The position numbers were made by a program, and so were the translations under genes. A stretch of DNA of 64,000 bases, from NCBI GenBank assembly GCA_019359615.1, contig JAHHHA010000001.1:310001-374000 (forward strand), given 5' to 3'. Below, in pieces: positions 2,448 through 21,652 of this stretch. The notes under the pieces are model-generated. The model was not told the origin of the DNA. It saw nothing but the letters and a program-made list of their open reading frames with translations, and did no database searches. Position 1 is the stretch's first letter. The number at the start of each line of letters is the position of its first letter. This stretch comes from Cyanosarcina radialis HA8281-LM2. Its GTDB lineage: Bacteria; Cyanobacteriota; Cyanobacteriia; Cyanobacteriales; CCAP-1448.

Positions 2448-5400
2448 TTATGCTGTTTCTTCGATAATTTTCTTGATGGCTCCCAAGAATTCTTGTTCGA
2501 TATAAGGCTTAGTAAAGTAAGCTTTAGCTCCTAAGTGAGCGGCTAGTTTTTGATGTTTGTCGCTGCTGCGGGAGGTCAACATGACTACTGGAATTTTGGA
2601 TATCGTCGGATCTTGACGGCGTTGGCTCAAGAATTCAAAACCGTTCATGTTGGGCATTTCCACGTCAGAAACCACTAAGTTAATGTTGGAATTTTGCTGC
2701 AACTGCTCTAACGCTTCTCTGCCATCTCTGGCTTGTAAAATTCGATATCCAGCTTTTTGCAAAGTCAGGGCTAACGTTTGTCGCAAGGTCAAAGAGTCAT
2801 CGACGATCAAAATTAGAGAAGATTGAGCCACAGCCGCAGGTTTGGCTGCTTCAACCCCAGACGGTAGCTTCAGTTCGGTAGCAGGCGCGATCGCTTGGGG
2901 TTTGCCTCGATCGAGCAGCGTCTCTAGCAAGTTATTGGCATCGATCACGGGTACCAAACTACCATCGCCTAAAATGGAGCAACCGTAAATATAGCTAGGA
3001 GGTGCGATCGAGGCCCCAAAAGGTTTGATTACCAGTTCTTGCTCGGAAATTAATCGATCGACTTCTACCGCAATTAATTGAGTATCTTGACGAATCAATA
3101 GCAGCGGCGGCTCCCATTCTTCCGGCGCAGGCACAGTTGTTAATACTGGGCTGAGAACTGATTCTGGCAAGGGACAACTGTATCTGAGCAATCCAGATAA
3201 AGGATGAACTGGAACTATTTGCTGCTGGTAGTGCAAAAATCTCTGCTGTCCCGAACGTTTGATTTGCTGCGGTTTGGGAATGACGATTTCTTCAATACTG
3301 TCGGATGGCAAAGCATAAGGAGCAGTACCAGACATACACACCAGTAATTTGGCGATCGTCAGCGTTAAAGGAATGCGTAAGGTAAAGATGGTGCCTTCGC
3401 CGACTTCGGAAGCAACTGTAACGCTACCTTTGAGCGATCGCAGTTCCGATCGCACTACGTCTAAACCTACACCTCGACCGGAAAGTTCGCTGATCTGGTC
3501 GGCAGTCGAGAATCCCGGTTGGAATAGCAGTTCGATCGCTTGGTTGCTGGGGGTAACTGCTGCTTGTTCGGGAGTCAGCCAGCCGATCTTCACTGCCTTC
3601 GCCCGAATTTTGTCTGGATCGATTCCTCGGCCGTCATCTCGGACTTCGATTACCGTTTGACTGCCTCGGTGGAAAGCTCTAATTTCGATCGTCGCCCGTT
3701 CTGGTTTCTTTTGCGCTCGGCGATCGTCAGGATATTCGATGCCATGATCGAAGGCGTTGCGAACTAAATGCAGTAAAGGCGAATAGAGTTTTTCTAGAGC
3801 GGCTTTATCGACCAAAACTCCACTACCAGTTAATTTGAGGTCTACTGGTTTTTGGTAGCTCAGCGATAAGTCGCGCAAGATTCTGGGAAAACGGTTCATC
3901 ACTTCCCCAACTGGCAGCATTCGCGACCACATCAAGTCGTCTCTAAGGTTGGCCACCATCCGCCGCTGACCTTCCAGGGTTTCACCAGATTGTCCGGCAA
4001 TCAGGGCTACGTCTCCCACCACTTCTTCTAGCTGAATCATTTCTTCGATCGAGCTTTGCAGTAGGGAATATAGTTCCCCGTAGCTGTCCATTTCTAAAGA
4101 ATCGAATCCAGCGAGCAAGGAGGCTGAGGTGTTAAGAGATGGCTGTAGAGACGCGCCAGGCCGGATCTGAGGATTGCCATTCACTCCCCGGCCGGTGCGA
4201 TATCGATCGGGGGAAACCAGCATCTGGTCGGAAAGATCTCGCAACTGAGCGGTCATTTGCTGGAATTTGGCAAACCGACGCAACAGTTCGCGCACCGTCC
4301 CTTGCAGTTGCTCGTTTTGTAGCGATAAGCTATTCCGGTTGATCGCCAGTTCGCCCACCAAGTTATTCATGCGCTCTAGCCGTTGCATATCGACGCGCAC
4401 GAACAGTTGAGCCGCTGCCTCAGCATTGGCCGTTACGGGTTCAAACTTAACATCTTGGGTAACAGGCTTCTGGCGACCAGTGGTGAGACTAGAAGGAGTC
4501 GGGGTCACATCCAAACTGGTGTCTATAGCCCTAACAATAGCTACATCTTGTTCGATCGGCGATAATTGCTCGAACGATTGTTCGACCGATTTCACTACCT
4601 CCGAAATATTTTCTGGCTGGTCGATTCTTAATACTTCGGGTCCGATATTTGGTGCTGGCGAGGGTGTTATTTGGCTGATGAATGACTGTCCCGCTGCCGA
4701 TAGAGGGGCTGAGATCTCGACATCGTTGAAAATATCGTCTAATGAAGGGGCGGGAGCAGCGATTTCGTTGTTATTTTTTAACTCGATGACAGTAATTTCA
4801 TCTGTGGGTGGAATCAGATCGAAATCGGCATCATCTTGGGATAAAGTTAACTCCCATGGTTGGGCTTCTTCTGGGCTGGGGAATTCGTCTCCAGCCATGC
4901 CAAAAATGTCATCTATAGAAAGATTGCCTGCGTCGATTTCGGCGGCTGGAGATAGATCCCAAGAGAGAGATTCTGTTTGAGTAAAACCGTCTGGCTCCCC
5001 TTGATAGACAGAAGACGAGTTAGCCAGTTCCATTAAGACTGGGGAAGGTGCGCCGCCATGGGTGCGATCGCCGTTAAGCACCTCTTGCCGCGCCATCTGA
5101 AAATCTGCGATCGCCAAGTGAGTAATTTCTATCGCTCGATCTGGATGAGCGTCAATAGCTTCTTCTACCGTTTTGGCGATTTGACTGAATCCGGGTAAAT
5201 TTAATAATTCGCCGATGCCTAAAAATACTTCAGCTTGCGCCCGCAATTCTCCGGTGACTAGATTGTCTTCAGGATTAGCTAAAACCGTTTCTAGGCGCTC
5301 GATTCCTTGGGCGACATCCACCTCAAAGATCGAAGCAGCAATATCTACCCCTAATTCCACAGAACCAGGCAGGTTAGCCGAGCCACCAATCAGATCTCCC

Positions 5401-5798
5401 AAACGGCCTGCTAGTTGAGCGAATACGGGTTCGGCGGCTGCCATGGCCTTTTCGGCATCGATTTTGCCGTAGCTCATTTGCTCCATCAGAGGCAAGCGCA
5501 GGCAGTCGTAAGCTTGTAGTAACAAGCTTTCTAAATCGTTATCGATTACTACTTCTTCGCTAAATAAGGCTTTAAAAACGTCTTCTAAGCTGTGAGCGAT
5601 CGTCTTTAAAGTTTCCAAACCAACACTAGCAGCCCCACCTTTAATCGAGTGAGCCGCTCGCATCATATTGTGAACTTTAGCCGCACTCCGCTCTGTAGAC
5701 AGAGTTAACAGTTCCGATTCAATGACTTGCAAGAGTTCCGGAGCCTCTTGCACGAAAAATATATAAGCTTGGTCGCGAATATCGGTATCGATTTTCAT
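2448..5798 (-). CDS. cheA: Hybrid CheA histidine kinase (HPt-CheA-CheW-REC, PixL/PilL-like)
   Basis: This is the central kinase of the operon, 1116 residues. The N-terminal HPt domain has the phosphorylatable His50 in AHSIKGG. A long acidic/Pro-rich linker runs to about residue 450. The dimerisation helices, then the HATPase domain follow, with an N-box HLVRNAFDHGIE, a DDGRGID box and a G2 box GRGVGLDV. A CheW-like regulatory domain comes next. A C-terminal receiver starts near 995, with the acceptor Asp1045 in VVSDVEMPNMNG and a Lys in FTKP. This architecture matches Synechocystis PixL/Slr0322-type kinases, which control type IV pili rather than flagella. It lies downstream of three receptor genes on the same strand. 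A single HPt domain is visible, unlike the multi-HPt ChpA of Pseudomonas. Confidence 0.95.
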   Translation of the reverse strand: MKIDTDIRDQAYIFFVQEAPELLQVIESELLTLSTERSAAKVHNMMRAAHSIKGGAASVGLETLKTIAHSLEDVFKALFSEEVVIDNDLESLLLQAYDCLRLPLMEQMSYGKIDAEKAMAAAEPVFAQLAGRLGDLIGGSANLPGSVELGVDIAASIFEVDVAQGIERLETVLANPEDNLVTGELRAQAEVFLGIGELLNLPGFSQIAKTVEEAIDAHPDRAIEITHLAIADFQMARQEVLNGDRTHGGAPSPVLMELANSSSVYQGEPDGFTQTESLSWDLSPAAEIDAGNLSIDDIFGMAGDEFPSPEEAQPWELTLSQDDADFDLIPPTDEITVIELKNNNEIAAPAPSLDDIFNDVEISAPLSAAGQSFISQITPSPAPNIGPEVLRIDQPENISEVVKSVEQSFEQLSPIEQDVAIVRAIDTSLDVTPTPSSLTTGRQKPVTQDVKFEPVTANAEAAAQLFVRVDMQRLERMNNLVGELAINRNSLSLQNEQLQGTVRELLRRFAKFQQMTAQLRDLSDQMLVSPDRYRTGRGVNGNPQIRPGASLQPSLNTSASLLAGFDSLEMDSYGELYSLLQSSIEEMIQLEEVVGDVALIAGQSGETLEGQRRMVANLRDDLMWSRMLPVGEVMNRFPRILRDLSLSYQKPVDLKLTGSGVLVDKAALEKLYSPLLHLVRNAFDHGIEYPDDRRAQKKPERATIEIRAFHRGSQTVIEVRDDGRGIDPDKIRAKAVKIGWLTPEQAAVTPSNQAIELLFQPGFSTADQISELSGRGVGLDVVRSELRSLKGSVTVASEVGEGTIFTLRIPLTLTIAKLLVCMSGTAPYALPSDSIEEIVIPKPQQIKRSGQQRFLHYQQQIVPVHPLSGLLRYSCPLPESVLSPVLTTVPAPEEWEPPLLLIRQDTQLIAVEVDRLISEQELVIKPFGASIAPPSYIYGCSILGDGSLVPVIDANNLLETLLDRGKPQAIAPATELKLPSGVEAAKPAAVAQSSLILIVDDSLTLRQTLALTLQKAGYRILQARDGREALEQLQQNSNINLVVSDVEMPNMNGFEFLSQRRQDPTISKIPVVMLTSRSSDKHQKLAAHLGAKAYFTKPYIEQEFLGAIKKIIEETA

Positions 5799-6000
5799 AA
5801 CCTTAAATTAAATAAATAGAAGTTCAGGAGTTCAGGAGTTCAGGAGTTCAGAAGTTCAGGAGTTTAGGAGTTTAGAAGGTAGAGACGTTGCCTGCAACGT
5901 CTGTACAGAAGTTTAGAAGTTGTGGAGTCTTAAGTGAATAATTCCTCCTTGTCTCCCTTGTCTCCCCATCTCCCCATCTCCTCTTAGAATACCCTTAACA
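5799..6000. repeat. Spacer with AGGAGTTC octamer array
   Basis: About seven imperfect copies of an 8-base unit (AGGAGTTC) lie at 5820-5876. A TCTCCCTTG/TCTCCCCA pyrimidine tract follows at about 5944-5985. The latter is the complement of the GGGGAGAT family. Confidence 0.85.
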
Positions 6001-8298
6001 CTAGCTCACCTTAAACTGTTTGGCACTAGTTTGAAGTTCTTCCGCCACCGCGAGTAATTCCTTAAATGAAGATGATACTTGAGAGGCTTCGTTTGAAGTT
6101 CGATCGGCGATCGCGGCTACGTCAGTCATAGTTTGCGTTACCGATTCTGAGGTTTGAGACTGAGCGACGGTGGCTTGAGCGATCGCTTCGACTAATTCGC
6201 TAATTTGACGGCTGACTGCGGTAATTTTGGTCAAATTTTGGCGAGTTTCATCGACTAACTTCGTCCCTGTTGCTACTTGTTGGCTCCCTGCTTCCATTGC
6301 TGCTACCACCTCCTGAGTTTCAGTTTGAATGTTTGCCACCAGAGTTTCAATTTCTGATGTTGCTTGGGCCGATTGCTGGGCTAATGTTCTAACTTCGTCG
6401 GCTAGCACGGCAAATCCGCGACCTTCTTCACCAGCGCGAGCCGCTTCGATCGAAGCTTTCAGCGCTAACAGGTTGGTTTGAGCCGCAAAGGTGCCGATCA
6501 GTTTCACCACTTTAGAAATGCTTTGAGAAGCCTCACCTAACTGCCTCACTTTTTTGGCGGTTTCTGACACGGTTTCTTGAATGGTCAAAATCCCATCCAC
6601 CGTGCGGTTCATGGCGGCATCGCCTGCGGTTACTGTCTCGGTGGCTTCTTTCGCCGCTGCTTCTGCTTTTTCGGCATTGCTAGCCACCTCGCGAATCGAT
6701 TGCGACATTACCTGAATTTGGTTCAGCACGTCTTGAATTTCTTCGTTTTGCCGCAAGGCTTCCGTCGATAGATCTTCAACCGAAACGGCATTGGTACTAG
6801 TAGTGGCTGCCATTTTTTCGGCGGCGACTTGCACTTGAGCCACGATTTTCCGCAAGCTGCCAATGGTAGCGTTGTAAGAGTCAGCGATCGTGCCGATTTC
6901 ATCTTCGGTGACGCTAGCGCGAATCGTCAGGTCGCCTCTACTCACCGCGTCAACTTCCATCAACAACTCAAGCGCCCGTTTCTGAAGCAATTCTCTAGCT
7001 AACTGTTGCTCTTGAGCAGTTTTAGCTTGTTGCTCCATCGCTTCTGCCTGAGATGTTATCTGCTGGCGAGTAGTTTCTTCTTGTTCGACGAGCAAGTTTT
7101 GAATCTGTTCTGCCAGACGGTTAATGTTAGTGCCCAGTTTGCCCAGTTCGTCTTGCCCAGTCAGATCTACGCGAGTTGCCAGTTGGCCGCTGCCCAACTT
7201 TTCCACGGCCTCAGATGCTTGTACTACCGGCCGGATGACGCGATTGGTTAAGTAAGCTGCTATGGCCCCTACTGATAAAGCTGCCAGCGCCGTACCCAGC
7301 ACAAAAGTCAATAGCAGCGATCTTTGGGCCGCAAATGCCTGCTTTGTGGGTTCGGTTAACACCACGCTCCATTTTAAATCTGGCATTGCGCCCACTTTAG
7401 CTAAACGAGTGTATGCCACCAATTGCTCTTGATTTTCAGTGAGAGCGAAGGTAGCATCGCTTTGATTTGCTTTTAATCGAGCAAAATTGGTCAACAAAGA
7501 ATTAGCATTTTGTCCTTCCTTTTTGCCTGATGCCGACAAGATTATTTTATTGTTTGAATCTATTAAGAATATCTCTGAATTCTCGGCAGCTTGTTTCAGG
7601 GTTGGGCGTAATAATTCCACAGGGATTCGCGAACGGACAATAGCACTAATTTTGCCAGTATTACTATCCACAATGGGAGCCGCAGCGAAAATAGAATGTT
7701 TTTTGGTTAAAGCCGAAGCCCTAGCAACAATGGTAGGGCGCTTGGTACCGATTACTTGCTTGAAATAATCTCGCTGACCCAGACCTGTAACTGGTTCTCC
7801 CTCAGATTGCAGAATTGTTTTACCTGTCAGATCGCCGATGGCAATATTGTCATAGTAGCCGTAATATTTCAGATAGTTATCAAGAACTGTTTGTTTCTCT
7901 TTAGCGGTAGCACCTGCTGCGAGATTAGAGTTGCTAAATATTGGCAGACTAGCCATTAAGCTGATATCTGCATATCGTTCGGATAGAAAACTGGCTAGTA
8001 TATTACTAATTAATTGAGTCCTATAGCGTCGCTCTTGTTTGATTTCTTGCACCAATTGTTGGTTGGCAAAATAATAGGCAACTGTTCCAATTCCTACGAC
8101 TGGAACTATACCTAGAGTAATCGCTAAAGCTACAGCTTTAGTTCGCAGGCTCAATCTTTGCCACCAATTCCCAGCTTCTCGTTCTTCGCCTACTTCGAGT
8201 GGATTTAAATTGCCGCTATCTTTGACCCGATCGAGCTTAGAAGGAGTAATAAATTCGTCTATAGATGTAGATCTGTTTGGTTTAGTAGAGTCAATCAT
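6001..8298 (-). CDS. Methyl-accepting chemotaxis protein, Cache-HAMP-MCP, no GAF
   Basis: This receptor has a cytoplasmic N-tail, TM1 (about residues 55-83), an extracytoplasmic Cache-type sensor with a FLIDSNNKIILSASG-like segment, and TM2 (about 326-349). HAMP and a second HAMP-like segment follow, then the coiled-coil MCP signalling domain. It lacks the GAF domain of its two upstream neighbours. The ligand is unknown. I chose the ATG at 8298 because AAGG lies eight bases upstream; a TTG seven codons earlier has no better support. The hairpin tip reads NLLALKASIEAA, with Lys (codon at 6457-6459) where nearly all MCPs have Asn. The product feeds CheA through CheW at the pilus-bearing pole or membrane array. 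Confidence 0.92.
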   Translation of the reverse strand: MIDSTKPNRSTSIDEFITPSKLDRVKDSGNLNPLEVGEEREAGNWWQRLSLRTKAVALAITLGIVPVVGIGTVAYYFANQQLVQEIKQERRYRTQLISNILASFLSERYADISLMASLPIFSNSNLAAGATAKEKQTVLDNYLKYYGYYDNIAIGDLTGKTILQSEGEPVTGLGQRDYFKQVIGTKRPTIVARASALTKKHSIFAAAPIVDSNTGKISAIVRSRIPVELLRPTLKQAAENSEIFLIDSNNKIILSASGKKEGQNANSLLTNFARLKANQSDATFALTENQEQLVAYTRLAKVGAMPDLKWSVVLTEPTKQAFAAQRSLLLTFVLGTALAALSVGAIAAYLTNRVIRPVVQASEAVEKLGSGQLATRVDLTGQDELGKLGTNINRLAEQIQNLLVEQEETTRQQITSQAEAMEQQAKTAQEQQLARELLQKRALELLMEVDAVSRGDLTIRASVTEDEIGTIADSYNATIGSLRKIVAQVQVAAEKMAATTSTNAVSVEDLSTEALRQNEEIQDVLNQIQVMSQSIREVASNAEKAEAAAKEATETVTAGDAAMNRTVDGILTIQETVSETAKKVRQLGEASQSISKVVKLIGTFAAQTNLLALKASIEAARAGEEGRGFAVLADEVRTLAQQSAQATSEIETLVANIQTETQEVVAAMEAGSQQVATGTKLVDETRQNLTKITAVSRQISELVEAIAQATVAQSQTSESVTQTMTDVAAIADRTSNEASQVSSSFKELLAVAEELQTSAKQFKVS

Positions 8299-8367
8299 AG
8301 TTTTTACCTTAATGGCCAATAAAAAAGAGGGCGGGGAGAGCGAAGAGGGCGAAGAGGGCGGGGAGAT

Positions 8368-8718
8368 TTAGTTATTAGACCGGAAGACTTGGTAATGGCA
8401 ATCGCTGCTTTCCTTTACTAGAAGATTCTGGTCAAACATCCAGTTGTCTGGATTTGTCATCATTTTGACTAAATCACTGAGGATTTGATTGTAAGTTCCA
8501 TATAGTTCTCTTTGATACTTACGTTTTCTCCAGGCTTCTGCTAGGTTGGCACAAACAGAACGCGAAGAGCGGCGAATTTGGTCGGTCAAAGCATATTTCT
8601 CTTCTTGGGGAAACTTTTTAGATAATTCAAATATTGTCATCGCTGTCTCAAATGCCAACTGGAATATTTCCAAATCCTCATGAATTTCCAACCTTTTATT
8701 TGCTTCCATATTTCTCAT
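8368..8718 (-). CDS. Four-helix-bundle (23S rRNA IVS-type) protein, central segment deleted
   Basis: The start reads MRNMEANKRLEIHEDLEIF. It continues with helix 1 and helix 2 of the TIGR02436/S23 ribosomal-intervening-sequence family, including IRRSSRSVCANLAEAWRKRKY. It then jumps directly to RELYGTYNQIL, the family's C-terminal helix. The usual third-helix region (the SEAAETQVWL stretch) is absent. The frame is kept. A homologous gene at 11850-12125 has lost exactly the part kept here. ATG at 8718 or 8709 is plausible; an earlier in-frame ATG (8760) is repeat-derived. The function of free-standing members is not established. It sits between two receptor genes of the operon. Confidence 0.7.
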   Translation of the reverse strand: MRNMEANKRLEIHEDLEIFQLAFETAMTIFELSKKFPQEEKYALTDQIRRSSRSVCANLAEAWRKRKYQRELYGTYNQILSDLVKMMTNPDNWMFDQNLLVKESSDCHYQVFRSNN

Positions 8719-8737
8719 ATCTCCATTAAATCCAGTC

Positions 8738-8773
8738 TCCCCATCCCCCCATCTCCCCATCTCCCCATCTCCC
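8738..8773. repeat. GGGGAGAT-family minisatellite (complement)
   Basis: CCCCATCTC units lie between the four-helix-bundle gene and the next receptor. They belong to the same 8-mer family as 2224-2353, in the opposite orientation. Confidence 0.9.
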
Positions 8774-8774
8774 T

Positions 8775-11765
8775 TCAGTTCACCTTAAACTGACTGGCGC
8801 TCGCTTGCAGTTCTTCTGCCACTGCCAGCAATTCTTTAAACGAGGATGAGACTTGAGTGGCTTCTTCTAAGGTTTTGTCTGACATCGCCGCTACCTTAGA
8901 CATGGTTTGAGTCACGGTTTCTGAAGTTTGAGACTGGGCGGCGGCGGCTTGAGCGATCGCATCGACTAGAGCACCGATTTGAGCGCTAACAGCGGTGATT
9001 TTAGTCAAACTTTGTTTGGTTTCATCGACTAGCTGCGTCCCCGTTACCACCTGTTCCGTACCAGCTTCCATGGCGGCTACCACTTCGTTAGTTTCAGTTT
9101 GAATTTCTGTCACCAGACCTTCAATTTCGGCGGTAGCTTGGGCCGATTGTCGCGCCAGGGCCCGCACCCGTTCGGCAACCACGGCAAAACCCCGTCCTTG
9201 TTCGCCCGCGTTGGCAGCTTCAATTGCCGCGTTGAGGGCTAGCAGGTTAGTTTGTTCGGCAAAGGTGCTAATCAGGTTCACTACCTTGGAGATCTTTTGA
9301 GAAGATTCACCCAGTCTCTTGACTTTTTTTGACGTTTGTGCTACGGTCTCGCGGATTGCTAAGATGCCATCGACGGTACGGTTCATGGCACTATCGCTCT
9401 CGGCTACCACCTGGGAGGCTTCCTTGACCGCAAATTCGGCTTTTTCGGCACTGGTGGCGACGGCTTGAATCGAATTGGCCATTTGTTGCAAGCGATCGAG
9501 GGCAGCATTAATTTCTTCAGCTTGATCTAAAGCTTCTTGGGATAGTTCGCGCACCGAGACTTCGTTGCCGCTGGTAGTGACGGTGAGTTTTTGGGCGGCA
9601 GTTTGCACTTGAGTCACGATTTTACGCAAGCTGCTGACAGTAGCGTTGTAGGAGTCAGCGATCGTGCCAATGGCATCTTCAGTGACAGTAGCCCTAATTG
9701 TGAGGTCGCCTTTACCGATCGCATCGACTTCAGTTAGCAGTTCTATAGCTCGCTGTTGCAGTAACTCTTTACTAGATCTTTGCAGTTCGATCAGGTTAGC
9801 GCGATCGAGGGCAAAACCCATTTGGGTAGCTACTTGAACTAATAAATCGCTATCGAATGGCTGCCAAGCGCGAGGACCGGAACACTGGTGAGCGATTAAC
9901 AACCCAGCTAAAGTCTGGCGGCTGCCTCTAGTTATCGGCACCACGAGGTTAGCTCTGACAGCAAAAGGTTCGAGGATTTTCAGGTGACATTCTTGCAGGC
10001 CAGCGGCGTAGACATCATCACAAGCCCAGATTCGCCCTTGACGATATTTCTCGATATAATCCTGCTGGAAACAGTGGTCTTCAATTTGCGCCCCCAGAGC
10101 TACCGGCCAGCCTTCAGCTACGGATTCAGCGGTAATAGTGCCGATCCAAGAAGTTTCGTCAAATCGATAAACGAATACTCGATCGGCCTCGATCGCTTGC
10201 CGCAGTTGTCCGACGACGGTTGAGAAGGCGGTATCGACCTGGGGATATTGACCCAATTCTAAGGTTATATCTCGCAACAGTTGGGACGATCGCGCCTCTT
10301 TTTGCTCCTCTGCCATACTACTTTCAATACTAGCCGCCATCTGGTTTAGTTCTTGGCTGAGAATGCCGATTTCATCTTGGCGATCGGTATTATCCAAGCG
10401 CACTCCCTGTTGTCCGGCGGCGATCTGCTGGGCAAAAACAGACAGTCGCCGCAGCGGCCGGGAGAACGCCCCAGCAATGGGAATGGCGGCTAAACCTGCC
10501 AGCAAAATGATACCTCCCCCAATGCCATAGCCAATTTTTTGCAATTCCCCCACCGTTTCGTCTAGCTCTCCTGGCAGCGTCCCGGCAAAAATCATGCCCA
10601 CGGGTTTGGCTTGAGTTGGGTTCAGTTCTTTTCGGTGGTCGTAGAGCGGGACGAAGGAAGCGAGATAAGTTTTGCCACCTATTTGGGTTTTGCCAGTAAA
10701 TTCTTCTTGTCCTCGATTCAAAATCGCTTCAGTAACTTCCTTGGGAGCGCGGTTCCCGATTAACCGATTTTTACCATCAGCACTAGGAACGCTAGAACTG
10801 ACTTCTAGATCGCGGGCGTATATTCCAGCTACCGCATTGTAGAGTTCTGTAAAGGCATCGGTTTGCAAGTGACCTCGATCGAACAACACACCAACTATTG
10901 CTACGCCCACGACTTTGCCATTGACTTTAATCGGTTCGACGGCCATGGCGACTAAACCCTCAGCCTGCTTGGCACCTGACGATTGGGGTTTGACAGCTAG
11001 CTGTTGGCCTAATCCCAACTTTTGCAACACTTGGATGTCTACCAACTCTATACCTTTTAGAGGGCGGCGTTGGGTTAGAGAAGCTTTGACGATCGGCACC
11101 TCTCCTAACTCGACTCCAGTGGGCACTGATACCGATCGCAGAAATTTACCTACTTCCTCAGAACTCGTTCCTAAAGGATAATCTTGCAGCACCCTGACGT
11201 ATTGAGCCACAGTTTTACCGCGAATATCGGTAATAATGCGGAAACTTTTCCAAGAATCTGGTCGTTCTGCTTCTTGAGCCAGAGGTTGGAGCAAGGTTTC
11301 TAGCAGGGGACGGTTAGCCTCAACCTGACTGGGATTTTGCAGATCGATTTTGGCGGCTCCCACCGTCTTGGCAATGGTATGAGCCTGGGATACGCTTTCC
11401 AACCGTTGCCAGAGTACGTAGTCATCCCGAAACCCACCGCCATTGGACTTGACTGTGGCTAAAAGATTTTTTTGAGCGTTTTGTTGGCTGAACCAAACTA
11501 TCCCTTGAGTCACTGCGATTACTGGGACGGCGGCTCCAGCGATCAACAGCAATGCCAGTCGCGAGCCAAACCCCAGTTTGTTCCACCAGCCACCGCGCGG
11601 CCGATTCGGAGCGACTCGATCGGGTGAAGATGCTAAAGCTGCAAGATCTTCTATTTCATCTAAGGGGTCGCGATCTTCTTCCAAAGGGTCGCGATCGAAT
11701 AAGTTTTCTGACATTTCGCCATTGTCGTCAATACCGACAGATTTTGAGAAAGGACGATCTACCAT
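8775..11765 (-). CDS. Chemoreceptor with DXCF-type cyanobacteriochrome GAF domain (PixJ-like)
   Basis: The 996 residues show TM1 (about 68-92), a large periplasmic double-Cache region (about 95-405), TM2 (about 412-433), HAMP (about 434-485), GAF (about 505-665), a HAMP-like linker and an MCP signalling domain. The GAF has D563-H-C565-F and, 28 residues later, C593-H594 in AGLQECH. This is the spacing and context of the two thioether-forming cysteines of TePixJ-class cyanobacteriochromes, so a covalently bound bilin and blue/green-type photochemistry are predicted. The signalling tip reads [12 protein letters not shown], with Asn (codon 9210-9212) in place of the conserved Arg. Start: ATG at 11765. 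A phototaxis receptor, possibly also sensing a chemical via Cache. Confidence 0.9.
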
Positions 11766-11803
11766 AGTGTTTACTCTAATTAGTTAATTGATACTGTAGG
11801 AGA

Positions 11804-11846
11804 AAGGGGGAGGAGATGGGGAGATGGGGAGATGGGGAGATGGGGG
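11804..11846. repeat. GGGGAGAT minisatellite
   Basis: About four 8-mer units lie directly after the second four-helix-bundle gene, as at the corresponding place beside the first copy. Confidence 0.85.
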
Positions 11847-11849
11847 GAT

Positions 11850-12125
11850 TTAGTTATCAAATGGCAAGACTTGGTAATAGCAATCATCCATTTCCCTAAC
11901 TAGAAGATTTGGGTCGATCGTCCAGTTATCTGGACTTGTCCTCATTTTGACTAAACCACCGAGAATGCGATTGTAAGTTCCATAAAGTTCTCTTGCTAGT
12001 TCTATTTCTAGGTATTGACATTTCACCGCAAACTTGAGCCAAACTTGAGTTTCTGCTGCTTCTGACTGGAATATTTCCAAATCCTCATAAATTTCCAACC
12101 TTTTATTTGCTTCCATATTTCTCAT
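11850..12125 (-). CDS. Four-helix-bundle (23S rRNA IVS-type) protein, N-terminal helices deleted
   Basis: This gene begins like the copy at 8368-8718 (MRNMEANKRLEIYEDLEIFQ). It then passes directly to SEAAETQVWLKFAVKCQYLE and ends in RELYGTYNRILGGLVKM. It therefore lacks helices 1-2, including the AEAWRKRKY motif, that the other copy keeps. Together the two copies reconstruct one full-length family member. Each deletion is in frame. ATG 12125 or 12116 are possible starts. The gene lies between receptor genes in the same position relative to its upstream neighbour as the first copy, so a [receptor + bundle] tandem duplication is likely. Probably non-functional as a bundle. Confidence 0.65.
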   Translation of the reverse strand: MRNMEANKRLEIYEDLEIFQSEAAETQVWLKFAVKCQYLEIELARELYGTYNRILGGLVKMRTSPDNWTIDPNLLVREMDDCYYQVLPFDN

Positions 12126-12143
12126 ATCTCCACTAAATTCAAT

Positions 12144-12171
12144 CTCCCCATCTCCCCATCCCCCCATCTCC
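12144..12171. repeat. GGGGAGAT-family minisatellite (complement)
   Basis: CCCCATCTC units end exactly at the stop codon of the following receptor gene (12172). Confidence 0.85.
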
Positions 12172-15100
12172 CTAGCTGACCTTAAACTGACTGGCGCTAG
12201 CTTGCAGTTCTTCTGCCACTGCTAGCAATTCTTTGAATGAGTCAGATACTTGGGTCGCTTCATCTGAAGTTTTGGTGGAAGTTGCGGCTACGTCTGTCAT
12301 CGTTTTGGCTACTACTTGAGAAGCGTGGGATTGGGCTACGGCAGCTTGAGCGATTCCTTTTACCAACTCGCTAATCCGATCGCTCACTTGGGTAATTTTG
12401 CTCAAACTGATGCGAGTTTCCTGGGCGAGTTTGGTCCCTTCTACCACCTGCTTGCTGCCCGATTCCATCGCTGCTACTAATTCTCTAGTCTCAGCTTGAA
12501 TTTCTTGAACGATGCTTTCAATTTCAGCGGTAGCTTCAGATGATTGCCGCGCCAAGACACCCACTTCATCGGCAACCACGGCAAATCCTCGTCCTTCTTC
12601 TCCAGCGCGGGCAGCTTCAATGGCGGCGTTCAAGGCTAACAAGTTGGTTTGATCGGCAAAGGAGTTAATCAGACCGATTACCTTAGAAATTTTCTGGGAA
12701 GCTTCACCCAATTGCTGCACCTTTTTCGCCGTGGTCGATACCGTTTTCCGAATTGCTAAAATGCCATCGACCGTGCGGTTAATGGCTTCATCTCCAGCGG
12801 CTACTGTAGCGGTGGCTTCTTGGGCGGCGGCTTCAGCTTGGGCAGCACTTCTGGCCACTGCTTCGATCGAATTAGTCATGTCTTGAATGCGATCGAGGGC
12901 ATCGTTAATTTCAGTCGTTTGCTGCAAGGCTTCTTGAGATAGTTCGCGCACCGAAACTTCATTGCTGCTGGTAGTAGCTGCCATTTTTCGAGCGGCGGTT
13001 TGCACTTGGGCCACGATTTTCCGCAAGCTGCCGATGGTAGCGTTGTAAGAGTCGGCGATCGTGCCGATTTCATCTTCGGTGACATCGGCGCGGATGGTGA
13101 GATCTCCTTGGCTGACCGGATCTACTTGCATCAGCAATTCCAGAGCGCGTCTTTGCAGTCTTTCTTTTTCCGATTTTTGTTTTTCTAGTAGATTAACCCG
13201 ATCGAGGGCAAATCCGACTTGAGTAGCTAACTGACTGAATAAGTCGATATCCTTGGTATCCCAATTGCGAGGGGCATCGCACTGATGGGCGATCAGCAAG
13301 CCCAAAAGCTGGCGGTTGCTACCCACGACGATCGGCGCTACTAGGTTAGCTTTCACCTCGAATGGCTCTAGTTGTTGCAGGTGGCATTCGGTCAAGCCTG
13401 CTTCATAAATATTTGCCGTCGCTTGCACTCGACCTTGGCGATATCTCTCCACGAAATGCTCGCGGAAGCAAGGATCGTCAATGCTGGCTCCTAAAGCCCT
13501 GGGATAACCATCGGCTACCGATTCAGCGATGATGTTGCCCAACCAATTTTTGTTGAATTCATAGACAATTACTCGATCGGTTTTCAGGGCAAACCGCATC
13601 TCTTCGACAGCGGTGTTGAGAATTTGTTCGACTTGGGGAAATTGACTGAGTTTGAGGGTAATGTCTTTGAGAAGTTGCGATCGCTCGTTTTCCGATTGCT
13701 GCTGGCTCAAAAGCACTTGAATTTGCGATGACATCTGGTTGATGTTAGAGGCTAACACGCCGATTTCGTCATCGCTTTTCACTGGGACGACTGTATCGAA
13801 TTCTCCTTTGCCTAATTTTTGCACCGCCTCGGTTGCTTCTACTAGAGGACGGGTAGCACGGTTGGCCAAAAAGGTCGCTAAAGCACCTACTGCGATCGCC
13901 GTCAGAGCCGTTCCCAATAACATCGATAACAGCAATTGACGTTGAGGAGCAAAAGCCACATCTGTAGGCTGAGAAATCACTCCTCCCCAGTTGAGGTTAT
14001 ATGGTTCTTCTGCTAAATCTTCAGTTGTGGTGTAAGTCCGTAATTCCTCCTGTTTGCTGACTAAATTTCGTTCGACTTTAGTAAAATCTTTATTCTCTTT
14101 TCCTCGTTCGATTTCAGTTGCTAACTGAGGAAAAAACTCCTTCAAGTTTTTGCCAATTGCCTCTGGACGCTCGGACAGAAAAATCGTTCCCCGATCGTCA
14201 AAGAAGAAAAATTCCTGCCCTTTCGTCTCATCGCTCTCAAACAACTCGTTAAACGCTTCTAAATTTATGCGAGTTCTAATTATCCCGCTAATTTGACCGG
14301 TGACATCATCTTTAATCGGGGCAGCCATTTCCAAGCTCCACTTCCCGGTCCAACCAGATTTATATGGATTCCCAATAATAATGGATTGAGTTTCTATTAC
14401 TTTTTGCAAAAACTTGCTGTTCTGCAAATGATTTTTGTCCAACTGCCGATCGGCTGACGATTGCCCTAAGACATTGCCATTAAGATCGATAACGGCAATG
14501 CGATCGTAGACTGGGTTAGTCTTGACATAACGAGTTAACAGAGCGTCTTTCTGCTGTTGAGTAGTCGCTTGTCGAATCCTGGCATTAGCGAACGTATCTA
14601 GTTCGGATAGTAATTGAAGATTGGCATATCTTTCTTGGATAAATGCTTCTACTTTGTCCTCTAGGCTGCTAGATTGATACTTTTGACCTTGGATAATTTC
14701 TTGAGTTAGAGATTGATTGGTCAGATAATAAGCGATCGCTCCAATTCCTAATACTGGTATAGCGCTCAGAGCAATGGCTAAAGCTGTGGCTTTAGTTTTT
14801 AAACTCAATCCTTGCAATTGCAGGCGCGGCGTATCTGTTTTTAGCGCTATGGCTTTTTGCGCTTCCCAATCTAATTTTGCTGGATCTAGTTTCGAGGGTT
14901 GCTGTCCGTCTGAGTTAATTTCTTCTAACTCCAGTTCCGATTCCTTTCGATCTCGATCGAAGTCATAGGCTACAGCTTCATCAAAGGGATAGTCGCCCTC
15001 GGTTGGAGTCTTTGGCAAGTCATCAGCGATTTGTGCCTCTACGATCGATTCATCTGAGGTAGCGTTCCCTTCAACTCCACTTGCCTGCAAGTCCTCAGCG

Positions 15101-15210
15101 GTCTGTGACTCTGCGACGCTCTCTTCTAATGCTTCATTGGGGTGGCCGTCGATCTCGTTCTGAGCGTTCAGATCGGGGATATTAGAATTGGGTTGAGAAG
15201 AAGGAACCAT
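12172..15210 (-). CDS. Chemoreceptor with DXCF-type cyanobacteriochrome GAF domain (PixJ-like)
   Basis: The 1012 residues begin with an acidic cytoplasmic tail of about 135 residues. TM1 (about 140-164), a Cache sensor (about 170-420) and TM2 (about 425-449) follow, then HAMP, GAF (about 510-672) and an MCP domain. The GAF carries D579-P-C581-F and C609-H610 in AGLTECH, again 28 residues apart as in TePixJ. A bilin-binding, dual-Cys photoreceptor is therefore predicted. The signalling tip is canonical ([21 protein letters not shown]). The long N-tail holds repeated acidic AED/ADDL motifs of unknown use. It is the first receptor after the CheW, CheY and PixG-like genes, the order seen in pixGHIJL of Synechocystis. 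Start: ATG at 15210. Confidence 0.92.
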   Translation of the reverse strand: MVPSSQPNSNIPDLNAQNEIDGHPNEALEESVAESQTAEDLQASGVEGNATSDESIVEAQIADDLPKTPTEGDYPFDEAVAYDFDRDRKESELELEEINSDGQQPSKLDPAKLDWEAQKAIALKTDTPRLQLQGLSLKTKATALAIALSAIPVLGIGAIAYYLTNQSLTQEIIQGQKYQSSSLEDKVEAFIQERYANLQLLSELDTFANARIRQATTQQQKDALLTRYVKTNPVYDRIAVIDLNGNVLGQSSADRQLDKNHLQNSKFLQKVIETQSIIIGNPYKSGWTGKWSLEMAAPIKDDVTGQISGIIRTRINLEAFNELFESDETKGQEFFFFDDRGTIFLSERPEAIGKNLKEFFPQLATEIERGKENKDFTKVERNLVSKQEELRTYTTTEDLAEEPYNLNWGGVISQPTDVAFAPQRQLLLSMLLGTALTAIAVGALATFLANRATRPLVEATEAVQKLGKGEFDTVVPVKSDDEIGVLASNINQMSSQIQVLLSQQQSENERSQLLKDITLKLSQFPQVEQILNTAVEEMRFALKTDRVIVYEFNKNWLGNIIAESVADGYPRALGASIDDPCFREHFVERYRQGRVQATANIYEAGLTECHLQQLEPFEVKANLVAPIVVGSNRQLLGLLIAHQCDAPRNWDTKDIDLFSQLATQVGFALDRVNLLEKQKSEKERLQRRALELLMQVDPVSQGDLTIRADVTEDEIGTIADSYNATIGSLRKIVAQVQTAARKMAATTSSNEVSVRELSQEALQQTTEINDALDRIQDMTNSIEAVARSAAQAEAAAQEATATVAAGDEAINRTVDGILAIRKTVSTTAKKVQQLGEASQKISKVIGLINSFADQTNLLALNAAIEAARAGEEGRGFAVVADEVGVLARQSSEATAEIESIVQEIQAETRELVAAMESGSKQVVEGTKLAQETRISLSKITQVSDRISELVKGIAQAAVAQSHASQVVAKTMTDVAATSTKTSDEATQVSDSFKELLAVAEELQASASQFKVS

Positions 15211-15364: not shown

Positions 15365-15922
15365 TTATGGCTGAGGCATCCTGGCAATAATAGCATTGCC
15401 ATCTAAAGCCACCATAATATCGCCACTAGACTTGAGCCAGTATCCTCTGAGAAATGGGACTAAATCGGGGCTAACAGAGACATTCAAAGAAGATTGAATC
15501 AAATCTGGATCGCACGATTCCATATCTTCTACCTGGTTGACCACCAGCCCTAGCATTTTTCTGGTGTTGTTGCCCGGTTGGGTGGCATTATGAATCACGA
15601 TGGTAGTGTAAGTCGATCGACTAGCGGTACTTTGGTATATGGAATCCATCCCTAACAAATTCCCTAAATCGACCAGCCAGAGAACCTCACCGCGCCAGTT
15701 ATAAACTCCCATCACCCAGGCTGGCATCTGAGGAATCGGCACGATTTGCCCCATAGGAATTGCTAGAACTTCTGTCATCTGAGACACGGGCAGCATAGCT
15801 GTAGTCTCTGGCAGCAAATTAAATCGCAGAAATTGTTGCTCTGTGCCACTGCCTGGGTTGGCATTTGCGGTTTGTAGTTCCTCCGGTGGGGGATTACTCC
15901 TAGCTAAAAATCCTGATGACAT
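15365..15922 (-). CDS. CheW-domain coupling protein (PixI-like)
   Basis: The 185-residue product has a Pro/Asn-rich N-tail followed by a single CheW domain. That domain includes VAIPMGQIVPIPQMPAWVMG and YNWRGEVLWLVDLGNLLG, the classic CheW beta-barrel region, and VNQVEDMES. It would bridge the receptors and CheA. It sits between the CheY-like gene and the first cyanobacteriochrome receptor, the position of pixI in Synechocystis. The spacer to the receptor gene is 154 bases. Confidence 0.9.
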   Translation of the reverse strand: MSSGFLARSNPPPEELQTANANPGSGTEQQFLRFNLLPETTAMLPVSQMTEVLAIPMGQIVPIPQMPAWVMGVYNWRGEVLWLVDLGNLLGMDSIYQSTASRSTYTTIVIHNATQPGNNTRKMLGLVVNQVEDMESCDPDLIQSSLNVSVSPDLVPFLRGYWLKSSGDIMVALDGNAIIARMPQP

Positions 15923-16073: not shown

Positions 16074-16439
16074 TCAAATTTTTACCAACCGCTTCACAGT
16101 AGCGATCAGTTCTTCCTGGTCTACAGGTTTAGGGATATAGGCATCTGCGCCTTGTTTCATGCCCCAAAATTTATCCATATCGCTACCTTTGGTAGAGCAC
16201 AAAACCACGGGGATGCTGCTGGTTTCAGGATTGCCTTTGAGTTCGCGACAAAATTCAAACCCGCTGCGTCCTGGGAGGACGACATCGAGGATGATAATAT
16301 CGGGGCGATCGTTACTAATTTTAGCGGTGGCATCTTCGACGCTATTGGCTGTGGCCACGCTCAATCCGGCTCGTTTGACGCAACCACTAATAATTTCCCT
16401 TTCTGTTAGGGTATCTTCAACAATCAAAGCAGTAGGCAT
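16074..16439 (-). CDS. CheY-like single-domain response regulator (PixH/PilH-like)
   Basis: The 121 residues make one receiver domain: acidic pair in LIVEDTLTERE, acceptor Asp in DIIILDVVLPGRSG, Thr/Ser switch in LCSTKGSD and Lys in IPKPVD. There is no output domain, so it acts by protein contact, probably on the pilus motors or as a phosphate sink for the hybrid CheA. Gene order (PixG-like, this gene, CheW, receptors, CheA) supports PixH/PilH. Confidence 0.92.
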   Translation of the reverse strand: MPTALIVEDTLTEREIISGCVKRAGLSVATANSVEDATAKISNDRPDIIILDVVLPGRSGFEFCRELKGNPETSSIPVVLCSTKGSDMDKFWGMKQGADAYIPKPVDQEELIATVKRLVKI

Positions 16440-16571: not shown

Positions 16572-17759
16572 TTATTCTGCGGCTTGCGCTTGTTGCAGGT
16601 ATCTGTTAGTAACTTCGAGTACCGTGGCAGCATCGACTGGTTTGCTTAAGAAATCTGAAGCCCCAACTACCTTAGCCCGAACTCGATCGATAATACCGTC
16701 GTTTCCAGTCAAGATCACGATCGGGGTGTCGCGAAATGCCGAAACCTTTCGTAATTGGCTGCAAATTTCATACCCGTTGGTATTGGGCATGACTAAATCC
16801 AAGAATATCAGTTCTGGCTTCCGACTCAAGAGAGTAGCTATCGCTCTCATGGAGTCTTGCACGGCTAAAAATTGATATCCGGCTGAAGTCAGAATTTTCT
16901 CCATGGTTTGACAAACCAAAGGACTGTCATCGACGCAGGCAATCAGCGGTCCGGCTGATACTGGTTGCGGTGGTATAGTTCTGGTAGGAGGAACTGATAG
17001 AGGCGGCAAGTCTGGAATATTGGCCAGATCGACTAATCCGCCTTCGATGTAAGGCACTAAAGAGCGAGTAACATCGGTAATATTGCGCCTGGTTTGCACG
17101 GCGATATCTCGTAGGGTTCTTTGCCCGTTGAGCAGTGCCGATAAAGATTTATAGGTAGTAGGCGATACTTTTTGCTGGAGTTGATAGTGATTTTGAATTA
17201 CAGGAGCTTGATCTGGTAGGATGTCAGCGATTTGAGCCGCTTGCCACGCTTGCCATAACTTTTGAGCTTCTGCTAGTGCCTGTTCGACATCTACTAATAC
17301 TAATTGGGGAGATAGGGCCACATCTGGTTGAATTTCTCCAGTGATTTGAATCGCTTGTACGATATCGAACAACACTTCTACGATCGTGGCTTGAATCATC
17401 TTCACCACTTGCTCGCGACCGATCATTTGTTGCTGGAGGGCAGCCCACACCAATTGATATTCCCAGCAACCGCCATTTTCTTCTGCCGATAATCTAGAAA
17501 AATCGTTGAGAGATTTAACTAGATTATCCATAGGTGGCAATTTGCCGTTAAAGCAGTAAACTGCTAAGTTCCTTTGCCACCTTCTAATCGGATGAATGCC
17601 GCCATTGGCATACAAAATTCTACCGAGGCATAAGTAAACAGTCCACTCTTGTCCCAAAGAACTTTTCAACAGCAGCCTTCCACTAAAGCGAACTTGCTTT
17701 AGTTCCATGAGCTTTTTAGTAAATGCGTTGATATTAACGTTTGGGGCAGTCATCATCAT
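16572..17759 (-). CDS. PatA/PixG-type response regulator (PATAN/DUF4388 plus REC)
   Basis: The 395 residues show an N-terminal PATAN/DUF4388 domain (FSGRLLLKSSLGQEWTVYL and GRILYANGG near residues 24-55). An alpha-helical middle follows. The receiver starts near residue 271: IACVDDSPLVCQ, acceptor Asp in LIFLDLVMPNTNG, Thr in VILTGNDG and Lys in FLSKPVD. This layout is that of PatA, PixG and PilG-type cyanobacterial regulators, which act with CheA in pilus-based motility. It is the first gene of the operon, about 300 bases after mfd. The 44-bp inverted repeats flank it and the next gene. Confidence 0.9.
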   Translation of the reverse strand: MMMTAPNVNINAFTKKLMELKQVRFSGRLLLKSSLGQEWTVYLCLGRILYANGGIHPIRRWQRNLAVYCFNGKLPPMDNLVKSLNDFSRLSAEENGGCWEYQLVWAALQQQMIGREQVVKMIQATIVEVLFDIVQAIQITGEIQPDVALSPQLVLVDVEQALAEAQKLWQAWQAAQIADILPDQAPVIQNHYQLQQKVSPTTYKSLSALLNGQRTLRDIAVQTRRNITDVTRSLVPYIEGGLVDLANIPDLPPLSVPPTRTIPPQPVSAGPLIACVDDSPLVCQTMEKILTSAGYQFLAVQDSMRAIATLLSRKPELIFLDLVMPNTNGYEICSQLRKVSAFRDTPIVILTGNDGIIDRVRAKVVGASDFLSKPVDAATVLEVTNRYLQQAQAAE

Positions 17760-18061
17760 TCCCTTATAAAAAAATTGCTGGAATTACCGATCCGAGCGAA
17801 ATAATCAATCTCCACCATAATTAAATTAAACTACTCTGGTGCGGTTGAGAGCTTCAGTAAAATTACTAAGTTTTAGACTAAGAGATCCCATCGTTCGTGA
17901 AAATACTGAATCTAGAGGGGAGAGGGGGAAGAGGGCGAGAGGGCGAGAAAAGTTAAAAGTCAAAAGTCAGCTTCGGCAGGCTCAGCTACCAAAGTCAAAA
18001 AACAACGCGCACTTCCTCAACTGCTGAACTCCTGAACTTCTGAACTTCTGAACTTCTGATT
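17760..18061. repeat. Spacer with right arm of the 44-bp inverted repeat and ACTTCTG array
   Basis: The spacer upstream of the operon holds the right inverted-repeat arm (17957-18000). A GAGAGGGGGA purine tract lies at about 17917-17948, and about five CTGAACTT(C) units at 18019-18060. The operon promoter should lie within 17760-17900, but I cannot assign -10/-35 boxes with confidence. Confidence 0.75.
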
Positions 18062-21000: not shown

Positions 21001-21652
21001 CCAAGCGCACTGGCAATTCTGCCGCTACGGGGAAAACGTCGATGATATCTCCCCGGCGGCTCCATTGTCCTTCTGTTTCCACTAAAGGCACGCGATCGTA
21101 TCCTAGTCGAGCTAACTGGCGGCTAAAAGCTGCTAAATCCCAACTTTCTCCGCGATTTAGAGTCAGGCAGTAAGGAGCGAAAGCCTCGGTCGGTGGCAGG
21201 TGGGGTTGAAGCGATCGCTCAGTCGCCACAATCGCCCAACCGAGGGAGTGTTGAGTGTTAAGGGTTGAGTGTTGAGTTAAGAGTTCTTCCCCATTTCCCT
21301 TTCCCCTTCCCCTTTCGGCCACCAAATCTGACAACACCTGCATCTGTCCCCAAGTCATCTCTGATTCGGGGGCAAATGGCTCGTAGGGGGATGCTTCTGA
21401 CGTGGGATAAAAATATACCTGCGACCACCCCATCGCCTCTAGCTGGGCGGCCCAGCGTCCAGCTTCTTCTAAGGTTGCCGTTACTACTAATAAATTACGT
21501 CCTTCAGCTTGCGCTAAGGCCGAAGTCACCAATCCTTTGGGCAGGCGAGAAATGCCATTAAGCCTGATATTTGACTGGCGATCGAGTTTGGTGAGGAGTT
21601 CCGTGGTTAGCGGCGATCGCCCCAGAGTCCGAATAATTGAAGAGAGAGCCAT
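18062..21652 (-). CDS. mfd: Transcription-repair coupling factor Mfd
   Basis: The 1196-residue helicase removes RNA polymerase stalled at lesions and recruits UvrA. Visible parts are the N-terminal UvrB-like module, the CarD/RID module ([20 protein letters not shown]), the RecG-type motor with Walker [10 protein letters not shown] and DEEQ box [10 protein letters not shown], then GRVGRSG and the C-terminal D7 region. The N-terminal half contains four low-complexity stretches that look like the intergenic repeats of this genome translated in frame. They lie at about residues 124-136, 261-278, 333-353 and 391-405. The motor is intact. It lies upstream of the phototaxis operon, same strand, without clear coupling. 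Confidence 0.97.
20440..20480. repeat. Intragenic TGTTGAGTG repeat inside mfd
   Basis: GTGTTGAGTGTTGAATGTTGAG-type units are the same family seen in spacers at 62245-62285 and 62884-62920. They are read in frame as HSTFNTQH-like residues in Mfd. Confidence 0.85.
20595..20655. repeat. Intragenic GGGGCGCAAAGCATTGCGCCCC-type stem-loop inside mfd
   Basis: Between CTGAACTCC/CTTCTG units lies a near-palindrome (about 20618-20644) with arms GGGCGCAA and TTGCGCCC. It is read in frame as part of Mfd. A split copy of the same hairpin surrounds the element at 34406-34630. Confidence 0.85.
20820..20872. repeat. Intragenic CCCCCTGCT repeat inside mfd
   Basis: About five units of a 9-base CCCCCTGCT repeat are read in frame as Gly/Ala/Glu-rich residues. 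Confidence 0.85.

What the first reader, a model, noticed from the sequence alone, without database searches (positions are those of the whole stretch)
8775..15210. Phototaxis operon with two tandem receptors carrying DXCF cyanobacteriochrome GAF domains
Both receptors have a DPCF/DHCF motif and a CH motif in the AGLxECH context exactly 28 residues later, as in TePixJ. Gene order (PatA/PixG-like, CheY, CheW, receptors, CheA) matches pixGHIJL. Two different photoreceptors plus a GAF-less third receptor would be an expanded light-sensing array with possible two-colour comparison. Each also has its own Cache sensor, so light and chemical input may be integrated.
Basis: partly seen in the sequence, partly recalled or inferred. 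Interest (0 to 1): 0.75.

Follow-up and report, generated by a model that had tools for sequence, protein, structure and literature searches.

The report
Cyanobacterial phototaxis cluster with paired photoreceptors
This is a cyanobacterial light-steering gene cluster in which two neighbouring receptors each carry a bilin-type light sensor and a third has none; tandem receptors of this kind are common in relatives, and the mildly new point is that the second receptor's light pocket differs from the first, partly in a way also seen in one other genus.

Summary
Both receptors carry a GAF domain whose closest solved structure is the TePixJ cyanobacteriochrome (E 1.1e-49 for A, 1.7e-40 for B), with DXCF and CH cysteines 28 residues apart. 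Gene order is PatA/PixG–CheY–CheW–A–B–C–CheA, as in pix/tax1; C has no GAF. The arrangement is not unusual: 23 of 75 named loci fetched with these GAFs hold two or more adjacent receptors, and Gloeocapsopsis has three DXCF receptors in a row. A genome of the same family has orthologues of A, B and GAF-less C. Dual Cache in slot one with single Cache in slot two is found in 9 of 31 multi-receptor loci; the reverse pair was not seen, but 16 second slots are unclear. A keeps 11 of 12 inspected TePixJ pocket residues; B differs at five, of which P493H, T511C and Q526I are rare. B's GAF groups with second-receptor GAFs of the sister genus and of Hydrococcus (100/97). A colour difference is plausible but undemonstrated; two-colour comparison and Cache ligands are untested. 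New member of a known kind.

The parts
16572..17759 (-). PatA/PixG-like response regulator (DUF4388 + receiver)
   Evidence: Pfam
16074..16439 (-). CheY/PixH-like receiver protein
   Evidence: Pfam
15365..15922 (-). CheW/PixI-like coupling protein
   Evidence: Pfam
12172..15210 (-). Receptor A: dCache_1, HAMP, DXCF GAF (C581/C609), MCP signalling domain
13171..13677 (-). GAF domain of receptor A; TePixJ-like pocket (D579, C581, F582, H585, T598, C609, H610, Q613, N622; of 12 positions only W499 is replaced, by F586)
8775..11765 (-). Receptor B: sCache_3_3, HAMP, DXCF GAF (C565/C593), MCP signalling domain
9771..10277 (-). GAF domain of receptor B; divergent pocket (H564, D569, Y570, C582, I597 at TePixJ positions 493, 498, 499, 511, 526)
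6001..8319 (-). Receptor C: dCache_1, HAMP, MCP signalling domain, no GAF (listed start TTG; an ATG lies 7 codons in)
2448..5798 (-). CheA/PixL-like kinase (Hpt, dimerisation, ATPase, CheW, receiver)
   Evidence: Pfam
11850..12167 (-). Four-helix-bundle (S23/IVP) remnant between A and B: second half only (TIGR02436 48-105 of 109, 22.4 bits, just under its cut-off of 24)
8368..8760 (-). Four-helix-bundle (S23/IVP) remnant between B and C: first half (TIGR02436 2-53 of 109)

Best explanation
A pix/tax1-type light-sensing cluster that controls type IV pili. Light is read by two membrane chemoreceptors, each with a bilin-binding DXCF GAF domain between a Cache/HAMP module and the MCP signalling tip. 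Receptor A should behave as a TePixJ-like blue/green switch: phycocyanobilin attached at C609, isomerised to phycoviolobilin, with reversible linkage to C581. Receptor B should bind bilin at C593 and probably at C565, but with a shifted colour, dark stability or degree of phycoviolobilin formation, because its pocket has changed. The GAF-less receptor C joins the same signalling array and contributes only Cache input. All three act through CheW on one CheA, which phosphorylates CheY and the PatA-like regulator to bias pilus activity. Shown here: domains, cysteines, fold match of B, gene order, orthology, shared part of the A/B difference. Inferred: photochemistry, colours, membrane placement, array formation, pilus control, Cache ligands.
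For: TePixJ GAF is the closest solved structure for both GAFs by sequence and for B by fold. Identity to TePixJ GAF is 85 of 155 for A and 75 of 155 for B; A versus B 90 of 158. Cysteine spacing 28 in both. Gene order matches the tax1 set described in PMC5812497 (passages) and recurs in relatives. Bilin-reductase and PilB/PilT-family genes in the same genome. Orthologues of A, B and C in a genome of the same family, with tail-tree supports 99/94, 100/93 and 98/93. B-type GAF clade, 100/97, of window B with G001's second receptor and three second-receptor GAFs of one other genus (genus codes).
Against: No photochemistry can be computed. Phototactic use is species-dependent: PMC9090330 (passages) cites work in which PixJ was not responsible for phototaxis in Nostoc punctiforme, and PMC13383048 (abstract and passages) reports PixJ of Phormidium lacuna as a negative regulator of photophobotaxis. 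The B orthologue in G001 keeps P493 and Q526, so B's changes are not fixed in the B line. Of B's five differences from TePixJ, W499Y is the norm in relatives (142 of 150) and 498 is variable. The AU test does not reject the window's A and B GAFs being each other's sisters (p 0.285). Nothing is known of the organism's motility.
Confidence: 0.75

Rival explanations
1. The two photoreceptors are spectrally redundant: both are blue/green switches with the same photocycle, and what differs is the Cache input or simply receptor dosage.
For: In G017 (Gloeocapsopsis) all three tandem GAFs keep the same DPCF, T511, Q526 pocket and the first and third group together at 99/94, so tandem receptors need not differ in colour. 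G001 B keeps P493 and Q526. In the window the Cache classes of A and B differ outright, as in three relatives checked with Pfam.
Against: Window B differs from TePixJ at five of twelve inspected positions, A at one; a hydrophobic residue at 526 is found in 4 of the 5 B-clade GAFs, though three of those four are from one genus.
Confidence: 0.4
2. Receptor B is losing photochemistry: relaxed selection on the pocket leaves a GAF that binds bilin poorly or does not photocycle, a step towards GAF-less receptors such as C.
For: B carries rare replacements, including C at position 511 (0 of 150 DXCF GAFs); a GAF-less receptor sits in this array and in G001 and one in a Symploca cluster.
Against: D, C and F of DXCF, C and H of CH, and N535 are intact; the frame is full length and the modelled fold is confident; second-slot GAFs with the same DHCF and I or M at 526 occur in two other genomes, of one genus.
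Confidence: 0.15
3. The cluster senses light but not its direction: it tunes pilus activity or photophobic sensitivity rather than steering phototaxis.
For: PixJ of Phormidium lacuna down-regulates photophobotaxis (PMC13383048, abstract and passages); Nostoc work cited in PMC9090330 (passage).
Against: PixJ1 mutants of Synechocystis move away from light where the wild type moves towards it (PMC7690835, passage), and loss of PtxD abolished positive phototaxis in Nostoc punctiforme hormogonia (PMC5812497, passage).
Confidence: 0.25

Closest known systems
Synechocystis tax1/pix cluster (pixG, H, I, J1, J2, L; full gene order recalled)
   Same: PATAN regulator PixG, CheY-like PixH, CheW-like PixI, cyanobacteriochrome MCP PixJ1, CheA-like PixL (PMC5812497, passages); a second MCP gene, pixJ2, with the next locus number (PMC7076178, table passage).
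   Different: The window has two DXCF receptors plus one GAF-less receptor; one GAF each, against two in PixJ1 (PMC5812497, passage). Whether PixJ1 and PixJ2 have Cache or GAF domains was not tested here.
TePixJ of Thermosynechococcus
   Same: DXCF GAF with the same cysteine spacing; best PDB match for both receptors.
   Different: Of twelve positions inspected A differs at W499 only; B at P493, H498, W499, T511 and Q526.
Gloeocapsopsis crepidinum LEGE 06123 (L115 = G017) pix cluster
   Same: PatA-CheY-CheW-three tandem Cache and DXCF GAF receptors-CheA; first dCache_1, second sCache_3_3.
   Different: Third receptor has sCache_3_3 and keeps its GAF; the three GAFs share one pocket type.
Hydrococcus rivularis NIES-593 pix cluster (L116)
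   Same: dCache_1 receptor then sCache_3_3 receptor; the second receptor's first GAF is DHCF with M at 526 and groups with window B.
   Different: Two GAFs per receptor, and no GAF-less third receptor between the second receptor and CheA.
Nostoc punctiforme PtxD
   Same: Cyanobacteriochrome MCP in a phototaxis cluster (PMC5812497, passage).
   Different: Seven GAF domains in one receptor rather than single-GAF receptors in tandem.

Membership tests
pix/tax1-type phototaxis gene cluster | PatA-like regulator, CheY, CheW, cyanobacteriochrome MCP and CheA in one cluster and order | tested here: met
   same order in relatives
pix/tax1-type phototaxis gene cluster | Required for phototaxis through type IV pili | not testable with these tools
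   Only the presence of PilB/PilT-family ATPases was tested (4 matches)
DXCF cyanobacteriochrome GAF subfamily | Canonical Cys-His (CH) and second Cys in DXCF at TePixJ spacing | tested here: met
   A: DPCF C581, ECH C609; B: DHCF C565, ECH C593
DXCF cyanobacteriochrome GAF subfamily | Homology to and fold of TePixJ GAF | tested here: met
   sequence, both; fold, B only
DXCF cyanobacteriochrome GAF subfamily | Covalent bilin binding, phycocyanobilin-to-phycoviolobilin isomerisation, reversible second linkage, blue/green photocycle | not testable with these tools
   Only bilin reductases in the genome were tested (3 matches)
PixJ-type receptor | MCP with HAMP and cyanobacteriochrome GAF before the signalling domain (receptors A and B) | tested here: met
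PixJ-type receptor | Plasma-membrane placement (transmembrane helices) | not tested
   No helix prediction was run
PixJ-type receptor | Cyanobacteriochrome GAF in the third receptor (C) | tested here: not met
   No GAF in C; in the alignment C has a gap across the GAF of A and B

The most novel reading that the evidence does not exclude
Paired phototaxis receptors are a standing design in part of the cyanobacteria: a first-slot dCache receptor with a conserved blue/green GAF and a second-slot sCache receptor whose GAF has a separate colour or photocycle, so that one CheA array compares two light qualities, each with its own Cache input, against a light-blind reference receptor.
Probability: 0.2. 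Interest if true: 0.6.

Novelty: new member of a known kind. Interest (0 to 1): 0.33.

Why it matters
How cyanobacteria extract direction and colour from light with one chemotaxis-type array is unsettled. A compact cluster with two single-GAF receptors of divergent pocket types and a natural GAF-less companion is easier to dissect than five- or seven-GAF receptors: each photoreceptor carries one GAF, so a spectrum and a deletion phenotype can be assigned to one domain.

Tried and rejected
Tandem receptors as something peculiar to this genome: rejected; 23 of 75 named loci have two or more adjacent receptors of 500 aa or more. Recent local duplication of A to give B: not favoured, because A, B and C each pair with their G001 counterpart in the tail tree and A and B do so in the GAF trees (in one search the seven A and B rows together form a 95/88 group), but an AU test on the GAFs does not exclude the window's A and B being sisters (p 0.285). 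DHCF as a unique motif: rejected; 2 of 150 DXCF GAFs in the named loci have it. C as an originally GAF-less receptor: not favoured, since C and its orthologue group with A (97/96) inside a larger group of receptors that otherwise have GAFs (93/93); no topology test was run on this. The four-helix-bundle genes as a conserved part of the cluster: not supported; G001 has only about 70 bases between A and B and no match there, while its B-C junction is a contig break. PADLOC and PHROGs were not searched, being off the question. Literature searches; I saw no listed title, abstract start or passage that describes tandem DXCF receptors with Cache domains, but the library holds open-licence papers only and I read passages and one section, no whole text.

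Choices that bias the counts: the 75 loci come from one pattern-based scan (best 80 of 331 relatives kept) that favours DXCF GAFs with AGLT-type CH motifs. One search counts only GAFs that fit a fixed-spacing DXCF...CH pattern. The dCache/sCache classes come from small models built from 6 and 5 sequences; '?' means no clear match, not absence. One search counts loci with two or more receptors of 600 aa or more without checking adjacency, looks at the first two slots only, and includes the window and G001 among its 9 dCache/sCache loci; in the window itself slot three is dCache again. Of 35 such loci I dropped 4 before the count (L115, L129 and L133 as duplicates of G017, G018 and G024, and L158, which holds parts of two clusters). 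Other named and unnamed records may still be the same genome. The 20 stretches were chosen partly because one search showed tandem matches. The GAF tree used a hand-picked subset of loci (78 rows); I meant to drop six long rows, but three stayed in because of a naming slip (76 rows with one added).
Full report
What is there. On the minus strand, downstream of an mfd (TRCF) gene (18062-21652), lie a PatA/PixG-like regulator, CheY, CheW, receptor A (12172-15210), receptor B (8775-11765), receptor C (6001-8319) and CheA (2448-5798). Receptor A has dCache_1, HAMP, GAF and MCPsignal; B has sCache_3_3, HAMP, GAF and MCPsignal; C has dCache_1, HAMP and MCPsignal and no GAF. The two GAFs have DPCF/ECH (C581, C609) and DHCF/ECH (C565, C593), 28 residues apart. 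TePixJ GAF is the best PDB sequence match for both (1.1e-49 and 1.7e-40), and the AlphaFold2 model of B's GAF (pLDDT 89, pTM 0.86, 14-row alignment) has TePixJ as its closest fold.

Supporting machinery. The same genome (6.5 Mb in 65 contigs) has three matches to the ferredoxin-bilin-reductase family and four to the PilB/PilT ATPase family. It has two CheR matches, on other contigs than the cluster. Among its 39 GAF matches are other cyanobacteriochrome types, including a three-GAF MCP-like protein on contig C23 followed by a short CheA-like gene, and a two-GAF frame near the end of contig C43.

Is the arrangement special? In 40 genomes (the window's own and 39 of its order) searched with A's GAF-to-tip part, 40 of 40 have a match at 1e-60 or better, in many of them to the signalling part only. 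Of 20 stretches then fetched, chosen partly for tandem matches, 12 hold two or more receptors of 600 aa or more, G017 and G007 three. A scan of named genomes with the GAF alignment gave 75 loci; the longest run of adjacent receptors of 500 aa or more is one in 46, two in 21, three in 2 and none in 6. In 10 of the 75, two or more receptors in the locus have a GAF that fits the strict DXC...CH pattern, a lower bound. G017 is Gloeocapsopsis crepidinum LEGE 06123 by contig and frame lengths. GAF-less partners also occur: an 836-aa MCP beside a DXCF receptor in Symploca SIO2E9, and short MCP frames of about 180-240 aa in several others. Synechocystis lists pixJ2 next to pixJ1 (PMC7076178, table passage; that PixJ2 lacks a bilin GAF is recalled, not tested).

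Orthology and age. In a tree of 38 signalling domains, A pairs with the first receptor of G001 (same family, another genus; 99/94), B with its second (100/93) and then with the middle receptor of G017 (98/97), and C with G001's GAF-less receptor (98/93); the A and C lines together form a 97/96 group. The simplest reading is that A, B and C existed before these two genera split, and that C arose from an A-like receptor and lost its GAF.

A recurrent first/second difference in Cache class. Among 31 multi-receptor loci (4 of 35 dropped), slot one/slot two classes are dCache/sCache in 9 (window and G001 included), dCache/unclear in 16, unclear/unclear in 2, unclear/dCache in 2, sCache/unclear in 1 and unclear/sCache in 1; sCache/dCache was not seen. 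Pfam confirms dCache_1 then sCache_3_3 for G017, Hydrococcus rivularis and G001, though in G001 A the dCache score is below Pfam's cut-off (32.1 against 45). Results against a general rule: of eight further receptors scanned, five are second-slot, and of these four have no Cache match and one has sCache_3_3 under the cut-off; the first-slot receptor of G007a has sCache_3_3 well over the cut-off; the first-slot receptor of G027a and the single large receptor of RI_101 have no Cache match.

The pockets. In TePixJ numbering, A differs from TePixJ at 1 of 12 inspected positions (W499F). B differs at 5: P493H, H498D, W499Y, T511C and Q526I. In TePixJ, H498 and W499 bind the B-ring propionate, and the illuminated chromophore comes nearer to D492 and Q526 (PMC6955287, passages). 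Position 493 follows the motif Asp; the position that I take as equivalent in another cyanobacteriochrome (Val1018 of MCC3606390g2) has a modest influence on phycoviolobilin formation (PMC11284453, section 2.3 read; the equivalence is my inference). In 150 DXCF GAFs of the named loci, 493 is P in 148 and H in 2; 526 is Q in 115, L in 24, E in 6, I in 4, M in 1; 511 is T in 122, I in 24 and never C; 499 is Y in 142, and 498 is variable. So B's Tyr is the norm, and its rare features are H493, C511 and I526. Both H493 cases are the first GAF of a second-slot sCache receptor (Hydrococcus rivularis, and a bin labelled SU_1_2), with M and I at 526, and they group with window B.

The B-type clade. 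Window B, G001's second receptor, those two GAFs and a second-receptor GAF of G303 form a 100/97 clade (smaller sets 96/87 and 100/97). G303's slot is read from coordinates and its Cache class was not tested. A hydrophobic residue at 526 occurs in 4 of these 5 (not in G001), H493 in 3 of 5, a residue other than Thr at 511 in 4 of 5. Caution: by frame lengths and motif letters Hydrococcus rivularis is G315 and SU_1_2 is G342, and G303, G315 and G342 carry one genus code. The clade thus spans two families but only three genera, and the 493/526 change is seen in the window and one other genus. An AU test does not reject window A and B as sisters (p 0.285), and G017's three GAFs share one pocket type.

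How it most likely works. A is predicted to be a TePixJ-like blue/green switch. B is predicted to bind bilin but with altered colour, stability or phycoviolobilin conversion. C gives Cache input only. All feed one CheA and thence CheY and the PatA-like regulator, by analogy with tax1 (PMC5812497, passages). Whether the outcome is directional phototaxis or tuning of photophobic responses differs between species (PMC13383048 and PMC9090330, passages) and cannot be settled here.

Inserted remnants. Between A and B and between B and C are four-helix-bundle (S23/IVP, TIGR02436) genes reduced to complementary parts: 48-105 of 109 in one (just under the family's cut-off), 2-53 in the other. The two intergenic stretches align in two blocks, 154 of 173 and 125 of 153 bases identical, the first of which also takes in the end of the receptor gene and the repeats; both genes start in 8-bp GGAGATGG-type repeats; no such gene lies between A and B in G001. 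They look like decayed copies of one inserted gene, unrelated to light sensing; this is inference.

Verdict. A genuine pix-type cluster with two DXCF receptors: ordinary as an arrangement, with a testable divergence of the second receptor.

Noticed in passing
8368-8760 and 11850-12167: Two four-helix-bundle (S23/IVP) genes between the receptors are open frames, but each keeps a complementary part of the family profile; both start in GGAGATGG-type repeats. Decayed copies most likely; a split two-piece bundle is not excluded.
   Followed up: partly
2223-2353, 5821-5878, 8736-8773, 11812-11849, 12142-12172, 18011-18059: Many intergenic tandem repeat arrays with 7-9 bp units (GGAGATGG, AGTTCAGG, AACTTCTG types) around and inside the cluster; a GRWGDGE peptide like the one they encode also appears inside a GAF-matching frame on contig C2 (L044).
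   Followed up: no
L084 5632-8841 (contig C23 of the same genome): A 1070-aa MCP-like frame with three cyanobacteriochrome-type GAFs (DPCL, DPCF, DACI) and a very divergent signalling domain, followed by a short CheA-like frame: possibly a second, degenerate light-chemotaxis locus.
   Followed up: partly
   Followed up: partly
29019-32117: 1032-aa frame with only weak Pfam matches (bacterial DNA-binding, apolipoprotein-like), next to a YflT-domain protein.
   Followed up: no
36591-38027: DICT, CHASE6_C and HD domain protein, a probable signalling protein about 19 kb from the cluster.
   Followed up: no
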